Shown piece after piece: positions 24,356-38,219 of a DNA stretch of 64,000 nucleotides. The DNA comes from Agmasoma carcini (nom. nud.) (Eukaryota; Microsporidia; Thelohaniidae): assembly GCA_029232285.1 (NCBI GenBank), contig JAOXFI010000005.1, positions 124,001 through 188,000 on the forward strand, read 5' to 3'. The notes beneath the pieces were generated by a model that worked only from the letters and a program-made list of their open reading frames with translations, was not told the DNA's origin and made no database searches. The position numbers were made by a program, and so were the translations under genes. The stretch's first letter is position 1; every line of letters starts with the position of its first letter.

Positions 24356-25471
24356 ATGAAAATAAATGAATGTGCTGTAGAGTGGGAATCTGATATCGAT
24401 TTATGTGATGTTAAGAGATATTCACGTGAAATCATTGTCCCAAATTATGGTATAAAGAGTCATAAAATTGTATCAAATACTAAAGTTTTAGTTGTTGGAC
24501 TTGGTGGCTTAGGCTCTCCTGTCTTATTATATCTAGCCTCATCAGGAATAAAGGAAATAGGCATTGTTGATTATGATGATGTTGAACTACACAACCTACA
24601 AAGGCAAATTATACACACAGAAGAACAAATAGGTAGAAGTAAGGTAGAAAGTGCATATAATACAATATCAAATCTAAATTCAAGCATCAAAATAATTAAA
24701 CACACTGAAATGCTTAATTCTAAAAACGTGGGTGAAATTATTTCAAAATATGATCTAATTTTGGATTGTTGTGATTCTGCAATCACTAGATATATCATCT
24801 CTGATACATGTTCATTACTTGCGAAGGATTTGATATGTGGTTCAGTACTGAGTTGGAGTGGACAAATATTTATTTTACCTAGAAATGGACCTTGTTATAG
24901 ATGCTTATTTCCTGAACCAAAACATGATTATAGTACGTGCAACAGTAATGGTGTGATTGGACCTATGTGCGGTGTGATTGGATCATTGCAAGCAACTGAA
25001 GCTATCAAATTTATTATCAGTGAACCAACGACAAAGATAATATTATACAATGGATATACAAACACATATCAAAATATTAATAAAAGTGGACATGAGAATA
25101 GATGTATTGTTTGTAGATCAAAACAAGCGGATATTTATAAAAATTATGGTAAGGGAGATAAAGAATTAGATCTTTTGATTGATTGGGAGCATGTCTTAAA
25201 TAATATTGACAATTATTTATTGGTTGATATAAGAAGTCATGAGCATTTTAGAATGTTAAGAATTCCTGGATCAATCAACTGTGATGCCATTGATACATTG
25301 ATTGAAAAATATTCAGAAAAAGGCAAAAAAATTGTTGTATTTTGCTATTCTGGCAACAATTCTTATAAATTTGTTAATAAGTTGAAAAATAAAGGGATCA
25401 AAGCATATAGTTGCAAGGGTGGTCTTGAGAAATTAAAAGAAATGAGTAATTTTTATAGTTTAATTAATTAA
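24356..25471 (+). CDS. UBA4: Uba4/MOCS3, E1-like activator of Urm1 with rhodanese domain
   Basis: The 371-residue protein has an amino-terminal ThiF/E1 domain with the nucleotide loop GLGGLG at residues 48-53, the RYSRE motif, and zinc ligands CYRC and CIVC. The conserved Cys lies in STCNSNGVIGP. A C-terminal rhodanese domain (about residues 270-365) carries the persulfide Cys in VFCYSGNNSYK. Uba4 adenylates and thiocarboxylates Urm1, which donates sulfur for 2-thiolation of tRNA U34 through Ncs6/Ncs2. NCS6 itself lies at 37284-38219. The start follows AAAATTTTTATTCTTCCT. Confidence 0.95.
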   Translation: MKINECAVEWESDIDLCDVKRYSREIIVPNYGIKSHKIVSNTKVLVVGLGGLGSPVLLYLASSGIKEIGIVDYDDVELHNLQRQIIHTEEQIGRSKVESAYNTISNLNSSIKIIKHTEMLNSKNVGEIISKYDLILDCCDSAITRYIISDTCSLLAKDLICGSVLSWSGQIFILPRNGPCYRCLFPEPKHDYSTCNSNGVIGPMCGVIGSLQATEAIKFIISEPTTKIILYNGYTNTYQNINKSGHENRCIVCRSKQADIYKNYGKGDKELDLLIDWEHVLNNIDNYLLVDIRSHEHFRMLRIPGSINCDAIDTLIEKYSEKGKKIVVFCYSGNNSYKFVNKLKNKGIKAYSCKGGLEKLKEMSNFYSLIN

Positions 25472-25917
25472 ATATATGTTACTACCCTTCTTATTATTTA
25501 TAGTTCTTAAATATTATAGTGTAAAACACCAACCTTTAAAAATAAATTTCAAGGCTAAATGGTCCCATATTGATGTAAGTGTATAAAAATGTACTATAAC
25601 TAGCTCAAAAGACATGAAATATAAGATATTCTAGTACTGTATTGAATTTAATCCTTATATAATATTGTACGACTCTTGAGGTGATTATAAAATCTTAATT
25701 ACTCATCACCCTCCTCATTTGTTAAAAAAGTTTAATTTTTTATTTATAATTTTTTTTAAAAAACTTACTGTTAAATTAAATATCACTTTTAAGTGATTAT
25801 TCAATCCATTATACACTTAAAAACAACATCACAACATCATACATGTATATTTAACCTTATTGAATATTTTATTATACAAAAGTTAACATATTAAAAAAAA
25901 TAAAAAATTTTATTAAT
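25472..25917. other. Intergenic region, nothing recognised
   Basis: AT-rich spacer between UBA4 and the first cytidylate kinase gene; it ends in the start signal AAAAAATTTTATTAAT. Confidence 0.5.
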
Positions 25918-26553
25918 ATGAAACATATAACTATTGATGGGCCCGCAGCAAGTGGTAAAAGTACTACAGCTGATTTAGTTGCTAATAAGCTCGGTTTTGG
26001 TAGATTAAATGCTGGTAATTTGTATAGAGCGGTAACATACATTCTATATATAAAAGGGCTAGATGTAGAATCTGAGCAAACTCCCGAATTTATTAATGAT
26101 ATTAATCTAACCCTAAAGGATAAGCTAATCATATATGACAATCTTACTTTAAATCAACATCTAAGATCAAAGTACGTTGAAAACAATGTGGCTAGAATAT
26201 CTACATACAAATACATACGTGATTTAGTTTCTAGGCAACTCACTAGTATTGTAAAGGAAAGCAATACAAATCTTGTTTTGGATGGACGAGTAATGGGAAC
26301 CGAAATATTACCAAGTGCTTATTTAAAAATTTATTTAACTGCATCAGTAGAAGAAAGGGCCATGAGAAGGTGTGCTAATAATTCAACAGATTATAATGAA
26401 ATTCTTAATGAAATAAAAAAAAGAGATGATTTTGATATAAATCGAAAGCATGGCCCTCTAAGACCAGCAGAAGATGGATTTATAGTTAAAAATGATAACA
26501 TGACAATCAATGAGACAGTAGAAAAAATAATAGAATTATTTCATCAAAAATAA
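25918..26553 (+). CDS. cmk: Bacterial-type cytidylate kinase, copy 1 (active site altered)
   Basis: The 211-residue protein is of the bacterial Cmk family, not the eukaryotic UMP/CMP kinase family. It has the P-loop GPAASGKSTT at residues 8-17, LNAGNLYRAVTY, DGRVMGTEI, LTASVEERAMRR and the lid segment RDDFDINRKHGPL. Cmk phosphorylates CMP and dCMP. Two CMP-contacting positions differ from active enzymes: the Ser/Thr of LD(S/T)G is Ala32 and the Asp of GRDIGT is Val125. ATP-binding parts are intact. It may be inactive, altered in specificity, or act with copy 2. Copy 2 lies 585 bp downstream in the same orientation. AAAAAATTTTATTAAT precedes the start, so the gene uses local signals. Confidence 0.88.
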   Translation: MKHITIDGPAASGKSTTADLVANKLGFGRLNAGNLYRAVTYILYIKGLDVESEQTPEFINDINLTLKDKLIIYDNLTLNQHLRSKYVENNVARISTYKYIRDLVSRQLTSIVKESNTNLVLDGRVMGTEILPSAYLKIYLTASVEERAMRRCANNSTDYNEILNEIKKRDDFDINRKHGPLRPAEDGFIVKNDNMTINETVEKIIELFHQK

Positions 26554-27138
26554 AATTAATTTTTTGAATATTTGAAATTTTAATTATGAAGAGGGTCAAA
26601 ATAAGATTTATATGGGTTGAAATAAAGATATAAACAGTTTTACATATATGATATGAGTATCAATAGATGTGGTATTATACTGAATTACATATATAAGTAT
26701 ATCTATAGTTTATGGGGTTTAATAAATCTGAGATTAATAGCTAAGGTATTAGTCATGAAGAGACAAGCCATAATGATATGCTTGTTTACAACACTTTTAG
26801 TTAGAAGACCAACTATAAATCAATAGATTTGGTGTTGAAAGGTTCGATCTATATGATTTCATTAAATCTTATTGATTTAAATATATAAATATCAAAATTT
26901 GATAAATAGTTGGAAAGTATCAACACGTATTCATAAATTTTAAAAAATTATTTATGATAATCTTAATATATAAAAAGGAATGTACGTTGTAATAAATGGA
27001 TGTGACTCTTCAAACCTTATCACTTAAGAAATAATTTTATATATTTGAAATCAAATATAACTAACGTAATACTTAAGTCAACTTTGTTTCATGAAAAGAT
27101 AGCCAGACTCAAAACATATTTTCAAAAAAATTTTACCA
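26554..27138. other. Spacer between the two cytidylate kinase genes
   Basis: No gene or repeat recognised. It ends with AAAAAAATTTTACCA, the start signal of copy 2. Confidence 0.5.
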
Positions 27139-27786
27139 ATGAATTATCACATAGCTATTGATGGTCCTGCAGCAAGTGGAAAGAGTACAACAGCAAAATT
27201 AGTTGCTAAAAAGCTCAATATGATTCATTTAAATACTGGTCTGCTGTATAGAGGTGTTACATACGCTTTAGAATATACGTACAATAGCTATGACCTTGAG
27301 GATCTAAATATCAAAAACTTTGTGAAGAATCTAAGATTTGATATTTCACAAAACGAGTTTATCTACAATAATGTAAATATTTTGGATAAACTAAGAACAC
27401 CCAAAGTAGATAATGAAGTAATATCAGTAGCAAGAACTGGTTATGTAAGAGAATATGTAAATACTCTGATATATTCGATATTAAATGAAGCTGACACACC
27501 TTTTGTTGTTGATGGTAGGGATATCGGAACTACGGTCATTCCAAATGCCTTCCTAAAGATCTTTTTAACTACCTCATTGGAATCAAGGGCAAGAAGAAGA
27601 GCTAAAGAGACGGGTGAAAGTTATGATTCAATATTTAAAGACTTAGAGCTGAGAGATTTTAATGATATCAACAGAAAAGTATCGCCTCTTATTAAGGCAA
27701 AGGATGCTATTCTAGTGGAAAATGATAAGCTATCAATTGAGGAGACAGTTGATATGATTATTGGAATATACAATGAAAGAAAATAA
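27139..27786 (+). CDS. cmk: Bacterial-type cytidylate kinase, copy 2 (canonical active site)
   Basis: The 215-residue protein has all Cmk landmarks: IAIDGPAASGKSTTAKLVA, LNTGLLYRGVTY, VVDGRDIGTTVIPNAFLKIFL, RARRRAKETGE, and RDFNDINRKVSPL. The residues changed in copy 1 are canonical here (Thr33 and Asp128). It would make CDP and dCDP from CMP and dCMP, useful to a parasite that scavenges nucleotides. Its sequence is clearly paralogous to copy 1 but much diverged, so the duplication is old. The family is typical of bacteria, which suggests ancient transfer; a tree is needed to show this. Confidence 0.93.
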   Translation: MNYHIAIDGPAASGKSTTAKLVAKKLNMIHLNTGLLYRGVTYALEYTYNSYDLEDLNIKNFVKNLRFDISQNEFIYNNVNILDKLRTPKVDNEVISVARTGYVREYVNTLIYSILNEADTPFVVDGRDIGTTVIPNAFLKIFLTTSLESRARRRAKETGESYDSIFKDLELRDFNDINRKVSPLIKAKDAILVENDKLSIEETVDMIIGIYNERK

Positions 27787-28390: not shown

Positions 28391-28843
28391 ATGAAGAAGT
28401 ATGATGGAAGAGAAAATATCGATCAGACCGATATTGAAACAGAAAAGGTACGGTTTATTGATGCCTGTGTTGGTCTGCTGAGCTTAAATAAAGATGCAAG
28501 AACAAATCATGTTGTACCACTTTATACCAAGACAAGCTTTCAAAAAGGTGTGCTAAGTGATGTATATAGAATTACAAAGCACCCGAAGGAAAAGACACGT
28601 ACGATGCTTGGCAATCTTCTTGATTTAGGAGAAAGAGAAGTTCAGATATGGTTCCAAAACCAAAGGACAGCCGAGAAAAAAGGTAAATCAAAGATTTATG
28701 GTTCTATAAAGGACAATTATCCTGATTCTAAGTGTAGAAAGGATATCAATACACTTCAAATATTCGAAATAGTATTCAACAATTTGCCCAGTGATTTGAA
28801 GCGAGTGATAGAAAAAAATATTTTAAACTTAAATGAGAATTAA
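28391..28843 (+). CDS. Homeodomain transcription factor
   Basis: The 150-residue protein holds a homeodomain at about residues 42-100. Helix 3 reads EREVQIWFQNQRTAEKK, with the invariant W-F-x-N-x-R at residues 87-92. Helices 1 and 2 are VLSDVYRITKHP and KTRTMLGNLLDL, the latter pair having the yeast-like spacing. Homeodomains bind TAAT-type DNA through helix 3. Microsporidia keep about a dozen small homeobox genes, and this fits one of them; the specific orthologue cannot be named. The start follows AAAATTTGTCCCC. Confidence 0.92.
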   Translation: MKKYDGRENIDQTDIETEKVRFIDACVGLLSLNKDARTNHVVPLYTKTSFQKGVLSDVYRITKHPKEKTRTMLGNLLDLGEREVQIWFQNQRTAEKKGKSKIYGSIKDNYPDSKCRKDINTLQIFEIVFNNLPSDLKRVIEKNILNLNEN

Positions 28844-29469: not shown

Positions 29470-30893
29470 CAGTACTCCAAAAAAAAATTGTTTAAAAGTT
29501 GTAAATTTATAAATATAAATATAATTTGAGCATAATTGTATAAGTATATCTATAACATTTTTAAATCGCGAATTTTATATTAACTCTTTTGATAATTTTT
29601 TTAATTAAAAACCAATAAAAAAACCGGACACCAAATAAAAATACCATATAATTTCCCTCCTTATATAACTATAAATAAAAATACAGAACAAATACCCTAA
29701 TGGGTAAACATGTTTCTGAATTCGACAAAGGTCGAATTTTTCAGCTATTTTCTATGGGGTTTTCAATACGCGAAATCAGTGTAAAAACCGACTTAAAAAG
29801 ATCTACAATACAAGATCACGTTAGAAAATTCAAGAATGATGAAGAAGATAAAAGAAAAGGTGGTAGTGGTAGGAAGGAATTAATTGATATCAGCAATATC
29901 AAATCAATAAAAACCCTTACGCTACATCCCGCAATATTAAAAAAATGATTGAAGATGAGTCAAATATAAGTATCGGTGATGAAAGTGTGCGTCTTTTTCT
30001 AAAGAAAAATCATTTTAGATGTGTTTATCCTTCATCTAAGCAAAAATTATCAAATGTGAAAATCATTAACAGATTTAGAATTGCAAAAATGTGACTATTT
30101 AAAAGCAAAGACTACTTTAGCGATGTTATTTTTTTAGATGATAGTTTTTTTAACATTTATAATGACTCTAAGAGGCAAAAGGTGTGGGTTGAAGAAGGAA
30201 TATCAACGCCTATAAATGAAACTGTCAAATTTGGTAATAAGAAAATATTTGTTTGGGGTTGTATGAGTAGAAATGGTGTTGGGAATTTGGTGTTTTTAGA
30301 TGGAACCTTAAATGCACTATATTATACTCAAATATTAAGCAATAATTTAAATGAAAGTGCAAGAAAATTCTAATTTTCAAAATATAAATTTCAACAAGAT
30401 AATGATCCAAAGCATAAAAGTAAGATGGCTTAAGAGCTTTTTTGAATATATGAATATTGAAGTGTTAGAATGGCCTTCACAGAGCCCAGATCTAAACTTA
30501 ATAGAACATCTATGGGCTTATTTAAAGCAAAAACTAGGAAATGTTGTTTTTGAAAACGAGACGCATTTGATACCAAAAATTAGTGAAATGTGGGCTGATA
30601 TTGATACTTTATACTGTATAACACTAGTAGATTCTATGAGTGACAGAATTGAAGAAAATATCGTGGCAAAAGGTGGTCATACATCATATTAAATAAAGGT
30701 CTCCGGTTTTTTAATTGGTTTTTAATTTAAAAATTTATCAAAATTATCAAAAGAGTTTATATAAAATTCGCGATTTAAAAATAAAAAATGTTATAGATAT
30801 ATTTATACAATTATGCTCAAATTATCTTTTTATTCATAAATTCACACCCTTTAAACAATTTTTTTAGGTGTCCGGTTTTTTTTTGGAGTACTG
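29470..30893 (+). mobile_element. Tc1-like transposon with long inverted repeats and broken transposase
   Basis: The ends begin CAGTACTCCAAAAAAA on both sides, flanked by TA (29468-29469 and 30894-30895). The inverted repeats are long: left about 29470-29637, right about 30695-30893, sharing GAGCATAATTGTATAA and AAATCGCGAATTTTATAT. Each arm carries an ACCGGACACC block, but at different positions. The transposase lies between and is broken. The element is 1424 bp long and appears younger than the others in the window. Confidence 0.9.
29700..30692 (+). pseudogene. Broken Tc1-family transposase
   Basis: The amino end (MGKHVSEFDKGRIFQLFSMG, then IREISVKTDLKRSTI) is a helix-turn-helix domain typical of Tc1 elements; this frame ends at 29948. 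Catalytic-domain pieces follow in other frames: VIFLDDSFFNIY (first Asp), KIFVWGCMSRNGVG, QQDNDPKHKSK (second Asp) and WPSQSPDLNLIEHLWAYLK with the Glu of the DD34E triad. A one-base shift separates the second Asp block from the Glu block, so no single frame covers the domain. Confidence 0.9.
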
Positions 30894-37283: not shown

Positions 37284-38219
37284 ATGTCATGTGAAAACTG
37301 TGGTATAAATAAAGCAATAGTTATTAGACCAAAGAATGGATTAAAAGTATGCAAAGAATGTTTTTTTAATTTGTTTGAAAACGAAATACATGATTTGATC
37401 ACATCGTCAAAGATGTTTAAACCAAAAACTAGAATAGGAGTAGGATATAGCGGTGGTAAAGATAGCACAGTTCTTGCTTATGTATTAGATAAACTAAACA
37501 AGAAACACAACTACTGCTTAGATATTATACTCTTGTGTATAGATGAAGGTATCAAAGGATATAGAGACAAATCAATTGAGACAGTAACTATTAATCAAAA
37601 AATTTTGAATTTAGAACTTAATATTTTAAGTTATGAAGAATTATTTGGATTTACAATGGATAAGGTGGTTGAAAAAGTAGGCAGTAAAGGTAATTGCATG
37701 TACTGTGGCACATTCAGAAGGCAGGGTCTAGAAGAGGCGGCAAAAAGGGCCAATGTTGAGTGTATTGTGACAGGGCACAACGCTGACGACATGGCTGAAA
37801 CAATATTGTTAAATTTTATGAGAGGTGATTCAATTAGGATGAGGCAATGTACATGTTCCAGGACCGGTGGGTCAGGAAATAACAGTAACAGTATTTCTAT
37901 TCCCAGATGCAAGCCTTTTAAGTTTAGTTATCAAAAAGAAATTGTCTTATACGCTTATTATAAGAAATTACTATATTTTTCAACCGAATGCACATATTCT
38001 CCTGGTTCTGCTCGTGGTGATGTTAGACTGTTTATTAATGATTTAGAGAAAATTAAATCTTTTTCAATCAACAATCTTATAAAAGCTGGTGAAACATTCG
38101 AAGGTAGGGCGAGCAACAGTGTTGGTGTTTATGAATGCATTTATTGTTCACAACCAACCGCTTCTGCCAGCAAAACCTGCAAAGCATGCATATTTATTGA
38201 TCAATTAAAGAAACTATAA
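37284..38219 (+). CDS. NCS6: Cytosolic tRNA 2-thiolation protein Ncs6/Ctu1
   Basis: The 311-residue protein has an amino-terminal zinc knuckle (CENC, CKEC), the PP-loop SGGKDST preceded by GVGY, the CMYCG Fe-S or catalytic Cys motif, TGHNADDMAET, and a C-terminal zinc finger (CIYC, CKAC). Ncs6 with Ncs2 adenylates U34 of tRNA-Lys, -Glu and -Gln and inserts sulfur delivered from Uba4 and Urm1. UBA4 is at 24356-25471. The length and motif order match Ctu1 of other eukaryotes. The start is 4 nt after AAAATTTTT. Confidence 0.96.
   Translation: MSCENCGINKAIVIRPKNGLKVCKECFFNLFENEIHDLITSSKMFKPKTRIGVGYSGGKDSTVLAYVLDKLNKKHNYCLDIILLCIDEGIKGYRDKSIETVTINQKILNLELNILSYEELFGFTMDKVVEKVGSKGNCMYCGTFRRQGLEEAAKRANVECIVTGHNADDMAETILLNFMRGDSIRMRQCTCSRTGGSGNNSNSISIPRCKPFKFSYQKEIVLYAYYKKLLYFSTECTYSPGSARGDVRLFINDLEKIKSFSINNLIKAGETFEGRASNSVGVYECIYCSQPTASASKTCKACIFIDQLKKL

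What the first reader, a model, noticed from the sequence alone, without database searches (positions are those of the whole stretch)
25918..27786. Tandem bacterial-type cytidylate kinases, the first with a damaged CMP site
Two adjacent genes belong to the bacterial Cmk family rather than the eukaryotic UMP/CMP kinase family. Copy 2 keeps the canonical residues (Thr33, Asp128 in GRDIGT). Copy 1 keeps the P-loop and lid, but has Ala32 and Val125 at these two CMP-binding positions. A retained ATP site with a lost acceptor site suggests a new substrate, a regulatory partner or early decay. The long spacer and low identity imply an old duplication after transfer.
Basis: partly seen in the sequence, partly recalled or inferred. 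Interest (0 to 1): 0.75.

Follow-up and report, generated by a model that had tools for sequence, protein, structure and literature searches.

The report
Twin CMP kinases, one base-blind
An apparently microsporidian parasite genome carries two neighbouring genes for bacterial-type CMP kinases, and one of them has changed the two residues that in relatives touch cytosine's amino group while keeping eight other substrate-binding residues, so it likely also phosphorylates UMP, a step for which the searches made here found no dedicated enzyme in this genome.

Summary
Two intact ORFs of 211 and 215 aa, 585 bp apart and 42% identical, both score above the curated CMP kinase cut-offs; no other was found in the 4.26 Mb genome. 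Copy 1 has Ala32 and Val125, where 328 of 328 homologues have Asp at the second position and none has Ala at the first. The site is not simply damaged: eight other aligned contacts (Lys14, Tyr36, Arg37, Arg101, Arg124, Arg169, Asp173, Arg176) are kept, and in the Thermus enzyme the two changed residues are the pair that touch cytosine's N4 amino group. Coding constraint, a branch no longer than copy 2's, a confident fold and a start-site element argue against decay. Both copies sit in a microsporidian clade of the bacterial family; a residue state seen only in these two favours a duplication within this lineage, but the tree does not settle it. The genome searches found kinases for AMP, GMP and dTMP but none recognised for UMP. 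My reading is a kinase with relaxed or shifted base choice, UMP being the likeliest gain (inferred, unassayed). Main rivals: a spare ordinary CMP kinase, or a weak or regulatory pseudoenzyme.

The parts
25918..26553 (+). Cmk copy 1, 211 aa, with Ala32 and Val125 in the cytosine-reading positions
26011..26013 (+). codon GCT, Ala32 (aligned with E. coli Ser36, copy 2 Thr33)
26290..26292 (+). codon GTA, Val125 (aligned with E. coli Asp132, copy 2 Asp128)
25905..25910 (+). AAATTT element just upstream of copy 1's start, as before 14 of 20 window genes tested
26554..27138 (.). 585-bp spacer, 23% G+C; no ORF of 80 aa or more lies wholly inside it
27128..27133 (+). AAATTT element just upstream of copy 2's start
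27139..27786 (+). Cmk copy 2, 215 aa, canonical Thr33 and Asp128
27235..27237 (+). codon ACT, Thr33 of copy 2
27520..27522 (+). codon GAT, Asp128 of copy 2

Best explanation
Copy 1 is an intact bacterial-type CMP kinase paralogue that has changed the two residues which in relatives touch cytosine's N4 amino group, and it is therefore likely a kinase with relaxed or shifted base choice whose likeliest gained substrate is UMP, beside a canonical copy 2 predicted to keep the CMP/dCMP reaction. Shown here: the two substitutions, retention of eight other aligned substrate residues, signs of constraint, and no protein recognised as a UMP kinase in the genome searches; a confident Cmk fold is predicted. 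From paper passages: both residues contact N4 in the Thermus enzyme, and ordinary Cmks already turn over some UMP. Inferred: with hydrophobic Ala and Val in place of a hydroxyl and a carboxylate, the O4 of uracil is no longer disfavoured, while Tyr36 stacking, Arg101 and the phosphate and ribose grips stay; CMP turnover would fall and UMP turnover rise relatively. Copy 1 would then recycle UMP from RNA turnover to UDP, feeding UTP, CTP (one CTP synthase found) and dTTP (thymidylate synthase found). None of these catalytic steps was tested.
For: Asp at the second position in 328 of 328 homologues, Ala at the first in 0 of 328, both changed in copy 1; Lys14, Tyr36, Arg37, Arg101, Arg124, Arg169, Asp173 and Arg176 kept. 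Passages of PMC7259600: Thermus Ser33 and Asp127 both touch N4 of cytosine; Arg107 touches N3 and the hydroxyl; Arg126 and Lys15 the phosphate; Asp175 the ribose. Passages of PMC3603445: in a CDP homology model of Yersinia Cmk, Ser36, Asp132 and Arg110 bond to the cytosine base; Cmk over-expression suppresses PyrH inactivation. Passages of PMC10248530: a Thermotoga (d)CMPK accepts UMP. Genome: 2 Cmk, 1 PF00406 protein whose best solved relatives are adenylate kinases (107.4 bits against 93.7 for UMP-CMP kinase), 1 thymidylate kinase (15), 1 guanylate kinase (54), 0 PF00696 (36), 0 PF00485 (38), 1 CTP synthase (39), 1 thymidylate synthase (44). Constraint: dN 0.53, dS 1.35 by NG86; third-codon G+C 0.18 against 0.43 in the first position; end branches 0.86 for copy 1, 0.90 for copy 2; model pLDDT 93.9, best solved match 7l4a, E. 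cuniculi Cmk with two CDP.
Against: No assay, expression data or orthologue. Canonical Cmks already show some UMP activity, so copy 2 could cover the gap. So could the PF00406 protein: a Thermotoga adenylate kinase takes CMP and UMP (PMC10248530 passage) and yeast Ura6, of that family, takes AMP, CMP and UMP (PMC13397275 abstract; the family is recalled). The review PMC5113988 says microsporidia keep dedicated monophosphate kinases (passage). All 51 other microsporidian-clade proteins keep Asp, and I did not check whether those species have a UMP kinase. Arg101, which would touch N3, is kept; by recalled work on the E. coli enzyme (not read here) it does not suit uracil. By the same recollection, hydrophobic changes at Ser36 hurt CMP turnover, so copy 1 may simply be weak. 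The eight worst-fitting positions of copy 1, all with residues unseen in the 328, include Leu108, Thr77, Gly187, Thr109, Met126 and Tyr135 besides the two; Met126 is also E. coli's. Its mean profile score (-1.74) is below 50 of the 51 clade members. The assembly may be incomplete: no NDK and no SSU rRNA match (5 of 64 candidates scored), so a UMP kinase not found is not proof of absence.
Confidence: 0.4

Rival explanations
1. Copy 1 is still a CMP/dCMP kinase with somewhat lower affinity, kept for dosage or stage-specific expression; the two substitutions are tolerated.
For: Eight other substrate residues kept, Arg101 and Tyr36 among them; one of 51 microsporidian-clade homologues (Nucleospora, P0254) has Gly at the first position; replacing Asp132 in E. 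coli Cmk is mild by recalled work (not read here).
Against: Asp is 328 of 328 elsewhere, and loss of both N4 readers together was seen in no homologue.
Confidence: 0.25
2. Copy 1 is a weak or inactive pseudoenzyme, regulatory or in slow decay.
For: Several unprecedented residues and a low mean profile score; Arg110Ala, Arg131Ala and Arg188Ala of Yersinia Cmk showed no activity, so the pocket is sensitive (PMC3603445 passages).
Against: P-loop Lys, three lid arginines and the other listed substrate residues kept; dN/dS by NG86 about 0.39 (dS near saturation); end branch no longer than copy 2's; pLDDT 93.9; AAATTT start element.
Confidence: 0.21
3. Copy 1 has become a base-blind nucleoside diphosphate kinase, standing in for an NDK that this genome appears to lack.
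For: No PF00334 match; in Thermotoga maritima, which also gave no PF00334 match among that call's controls, AMPK, GMPK and (d)CMPK make NTPs from all tested natural (d)NDPs (PMC10248530 passages); 7l4a was solved with two CDP.
Against: The absence may be an assembly gap; the review PMC5113988 says microsporidia keep NDK (passages); I saw nothing in the sequence that points to a donor-site change.
Confidence: 0.08
4. Ala32 or Val125 is a sequencing or assembly error.
For: None beyond the absence of reads to check.
Against: Val125 needs two base changes from an Asp codon and Ala32 a third; the ORF is otherwise open and well aligned.
Confidence: 0.03

Closest known systems
Encephalitozoon cuniculi cytidylate kinase (P0005; PDB 7l4a)
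   Same: Same microsporidian clade of the bacterial Cmk family; 42% identical to copy 1; best fold match of the copy 1 model
   Different: Keeps Ser and Asp at the two cytosine-reading positions; only one Cmk cluster bearing that species' name in my three listings
Bacterial (d)CMP kinase, TIGR00017 / PF02224 (E. coli 1cke, Thermus 3akc)
   Same: Scores above cut-off, same predicted fold, same P-loop Lys, lid arginines and the listed phosphate/ribose residues
   Different: Ser/Thr36 and Asp132, both N4 readers, replaced by Ala and Val in copy 1
Eukaryotic UMP/CMP kinase (Ura6 type, PF00406)
   Same: Possible shared function (inferred)
   Different: Different family; the one PF00406 protein found in the genome is closest to adenylate kinases
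Bacterial UMP kinase PyrH (PF00696)
   Same: Possible shared reaction (inferred)
   Different: Unrelated family; no match in the genome

Membership tests
Bacterial Cmk sequence family (PF02224, TIGR00017) | Whole-protein score above curated cut-off, both copies | tested here: met
Bacterial Cmk sequence family (PF02224, TIGR00017) | Cmk fold | tested here: met
   copy 1 only, on a predicted model: pLDDT 93.9, ranks 1-21 of the PDB matches are Cmk; copy 2 not modelled
CMP/dCMP-specific kinase (function) | Ser/Thr and Asp that bind the N4 amino group of cytosine | tested here: not met
   copy 1 Ala32, Val125; met in copy 2 (Thr33, Asp128)
CMP/dCMP-specific kinase (function) | Equivalents of E. 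coli Lys18, Tyr40, Arg41, Arg110, Arg131, Arg181, Asp185, Arg188 | tested here: met
   8 of 8 in both copies
CMP/dCMP-specific kinase (function) | Phosphorylates CMP/dCMP | not testable with these tools
   needs an assay
Eukaryotic UMP/CMP kinase (PF00406) | Match to PF00406 | tested here: not met
   neither copy matches at E 0.001 in Pfam; copy 2 has weak NCBIfam adenylate kinase matches far below cut-off (19.8 bits against 168)
Prokaryotic UMP kinase (PF00696) | Match to PF00696 | tested here: not met
   neither copy matches; none in genome
UMP kinase (function) | Phosphorylates UMP better than the canonical paralogue | not testable with these tools
   inferred only

The most novel reading that the evidence does not exclude
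A microsporidian has remade a UMP kinase out of a bacterial CMP kinase by duplicating it and removing the two side chains that read cytosine's amino group, a third family for this step besides Ura6 and PyrH.
Probability: 0.28. Interest if true: 0.68.

Novelty: new variant of a known kind. Interest (0 to 1): 0.5.

Why it matters
How microsporidia acquire pyrimidine nucleotides is called unclear in a 2016 review (PMC5113988, passages). A Cmk paralogue that has changed its two cytosine-amino readers and kept the other listed contacts is a directly testable candidate for the UMP-to-UDP step, and a natural experiment on what sets cytosine against uracil in this enzyme fold.

Tried and rejected
Considered and rejected or downgraded. 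(1) Simple pseudogene: disfavoured by the open frame, NG86 dN/dS about 0.39 (dS near saturation, YN00 failed, ML gave dN 1.66 and dS 10.4, so a rough figure) and branch length. (2) Archaeal-type Cmk: copy 1 scores higher on TIGR02173 than copy 2 (53.9 against 34.9 bits), but 33 of 33 members of A1 match it and the best E-value among them (1.4e-15) is better than copy 1's (2.1e-14), so this means nothing special. (3) A profile-score outlier argument for Val125 alone: its score (-11.87) is the lowest seen, but copy 2's Ile111 is nearly as low (-11.84), so I rest on the chemistry instead. (4) Deaminase as a route from dCMP: the one PF00383 protein looks like a tRNA adenosine deaminase; cytidine deaminase families other than PF00383 were not searched. 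(5) Viral-contig scan with copy 1: 6 stretches matched a pattern, none encodes a relative. (6) Paper searches for a duplicated Cmk in microsporidia or a Cmk turned UMP kinase: I saw none in the listed titles and abstract starts; that is as far as this claim goes. Passages of PMC12667214 treat another residue, Ser11, and did not help. (7) SSU rRNA search for the organism: no match, so the microsporidian label rests on the tree, the two TLC-type nucleotide transporters (2 matches, 0 of 14 control genomes) and gene content. On rechecking I added the adenylate-kinase and review caveats and lowered the main reading from 0.42 to 0.40 and the novel case from 0.30 to 0.28.

Full report
What is there. 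The window (27% G+C) lies on contig C30 of a 4,263,419-base, 69-contig genome. Two ORFs run the same way: copy 1 at 25918-26553 (211 aa) and copy 2 at 27139-27786 (215 aa), with a 585-bp spacer. Both match PF02224 and TIGR00017 well above the curated cut-offs and share 42% identity. A whole-genome search with PF02224 found these two and no other. Of 20 window genes tested, 14 have AAATTT within 25 bp of the start, both copies included; no shuffled control was run, and that this is a microsporidian start signal is recalled, not looked up.

The substitutions. Copy 1 Ala32 aligns with E. coli Ser36 and copy 2 Thr33; Val125 aligns with E. coli Asp132 and copy 2 Asp128. I compared the two copies with the 328 proteins listed by three searches (the best 120 rows of each, overlaps counted once): 51 that group with named microsporidia and 277 others. 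The Asp is present in 328 of 328. The other position is Thr 258, Ser 67, Cys 2, Gly 1. Copy 1 is the only protein of this set with Ala or Val there. The Val codon is two base changes away from Asp.

What they do in relatives. Passages of PMC7259600 say that in Thermus CMP kinase Ser33 and Asp127 both interact with the N4 amino group of cytosine, Arg107 with N3 and the hydroxyl, Arg126 and Lys15 with phosphate, Asp175 with ribose, and Tyr37 appears to stack. Passages of PMC3603445 give like roles to Ser36, Asp132, Arg110, Arg131, Arg41 and Tyr40 in a CDP homology model of the Yersinia enzyme, and report that Arg110Ala, Arg131Ala and Arg188Ala showed no activity. I set Thermus Ser33 and Asp127 equal to E. 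coli Ser36 and Asp132 by these matching roles, not by an alignment of the Thermus sequence. In copy 1 the equivalents of E. coli Lys18, Tyr40, Arg41, Arg110, Arg131, Arg181, Asp185 and Arg188 are kept (8 of 8), as are three lid arginines. The Yersinia passage also names Ser14 as a contact; copy 1 has Ala10 there, but so do copy 2 and at least 95% of the homologues, so that is not special to copy 1. Two of these ten residues hit at random would be this pair one time in 45 (my arithmetic; not a test chosen beforehand).

Constraint or decay. NG86 between the copies gives dN 0.53 and dS 1.35; YN00 failed and ML gave dS 10.4, so synonymous sites are near saturation. Codon-position G+C of copy 1 is 0.43/0.32/0.18. 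End branches are 0.86 (copy 1) and 0.90 (copy 2). The AlphaFold2 model of copy 1 from alignment A1 (33 sequences) has pLDDT 93.9 and pTM 0.87; its 21 best PDB matches are all Cmk, led by 7l4a, E. cuniculi Cmk with two CDP. Against this, the eight worst-fitting positions of copy 1 (the list was cut at eight) all carry residues unseen in 328 homologues: Leu108, Thr77, Gly187, Thr109, Met126 and Tyr135 besides the two; Met126 is also in E. coli. Its mean profile score (-1.74) is lower than those of 50 of the 51 microsporidian-clade proteins.

Origin. In a 76-row IQ-TREE, the two copies and 51 microsporidian-type proteins form one side of a branch against 23 bacterial proteins, 100/100; the bootstrap had not fully settled. 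Eight of the 51 bear species names: Encephalitozoon cuniculi, E. hellem, E. intestinalis, Vittaforma corneae, Enteropsectra breve, Nucleospora cyclopteri, Ordospora colligata, Hamiltosporidium magnivora; the rest are unnamed and counted as microsporidian-type by the tree and score gap. A passage of PMC3486916 speaks of weak evidence for a bacterial transfer of the T. hominis cytidylate kinase, so the idea of transfer is not new. The two window copies are sisters with weak support (60/77); a tree with copy 1 outside all other microsporidian Cmks is not rejected (p-AU 0.547). One residue favours a duplication in this lineage: at copy 1 position 108, 322 of 328 homologues have Gln and 6 have Glu or Lys, while the window copies have Leu and Ile. 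No protein more than 45% identical to copy 1 was seen, so I found no orthologue; each search scored at most 8000 candidates, and one search did not list some clade members.

Pathway. Searches of the genome found one thymidylate kinase, one guanylate kinase (54), one CTP synthase (39), one thymidylate synthase (44), two TLC-type nucleotide transporters (53), and one PF00406 protein closest to adenylate kinases. They found no PF00696 (36), PF00485 (38) or PF00334 (46) match; the one PF00383 protein looks like a tRNA adenosine deaminase. UMP to UDP is thus left without a recognised dedicated enzyme among the families searched. Caveats: the SSU rRNA model also found nothing (5 of 64 candidates scored), so the assembly or the search may miss genes; a review says microsporidia keep dedicated monophosphate kinases and NDK (PMC5113988 passages); and adenylate-kinase-family enzymes can take UMP (PMC10248530 passage; PMC13397275 abstract start).

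Reading. I think most likely that copy 1 is an active kinase with relaxed or shifted base choice, UMP being the likeliest gain. That ordinary Cmks handle some UMP is in print (PMC3603445 passage on suppression of PyrH inactivation; PMC10248530 passage on Thermotoga (d)CMPK). This supports the ease of such a shift, but also means copy 2 alone might do. Substrate, activity and physiological role are inferred. From recollection only: studies of E. coli pocket mutants found mild effects of Asp132 changes and stronger effects at Ser36 and Arg110.

Verdict.

Noticed in passing
G000 (whole genome): No nucleoside diphosphate kinase (PF00334) match in the genome although a review says microsporidia keep it; either an assembly gap or a real loss.
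   Followed up: partly
window 24356-25471 and 37284-38219: A ThiF-rhodanese protein of the Uba4/MOCS3 layout directly upstream of the Cmk pair, and a PP-loop protein further on; together they could belong to tRNA thiolation (the pathway link is recalled).
   Followed up: no
window 29700-29948 and 30351-30692: Separate short ORFs with weak transposase-type helix-turn-helix matches below cut-off and a DDE_3 match just above it, looking like a broken Tc1/mariner-like element downstream of the pair.
   Followed up: no
window 28391-28843: A small homeodomain protein follows copy 2.
   Followed up: no
window 25918-26553 and 27139-27786: Both copies carry a hydrophobic residue (Leu108, Ile111) at a column that is Gln in 322 and Glu or Lys in 6 of 328 homologues; its role is unknown.
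   Followed up: partly
P0254 (Nucleospora cyclopteri Cmk): Has Gly instead of Ser/Thr at the first cytosine-reading position but keeps Asp.
   Followed up: no
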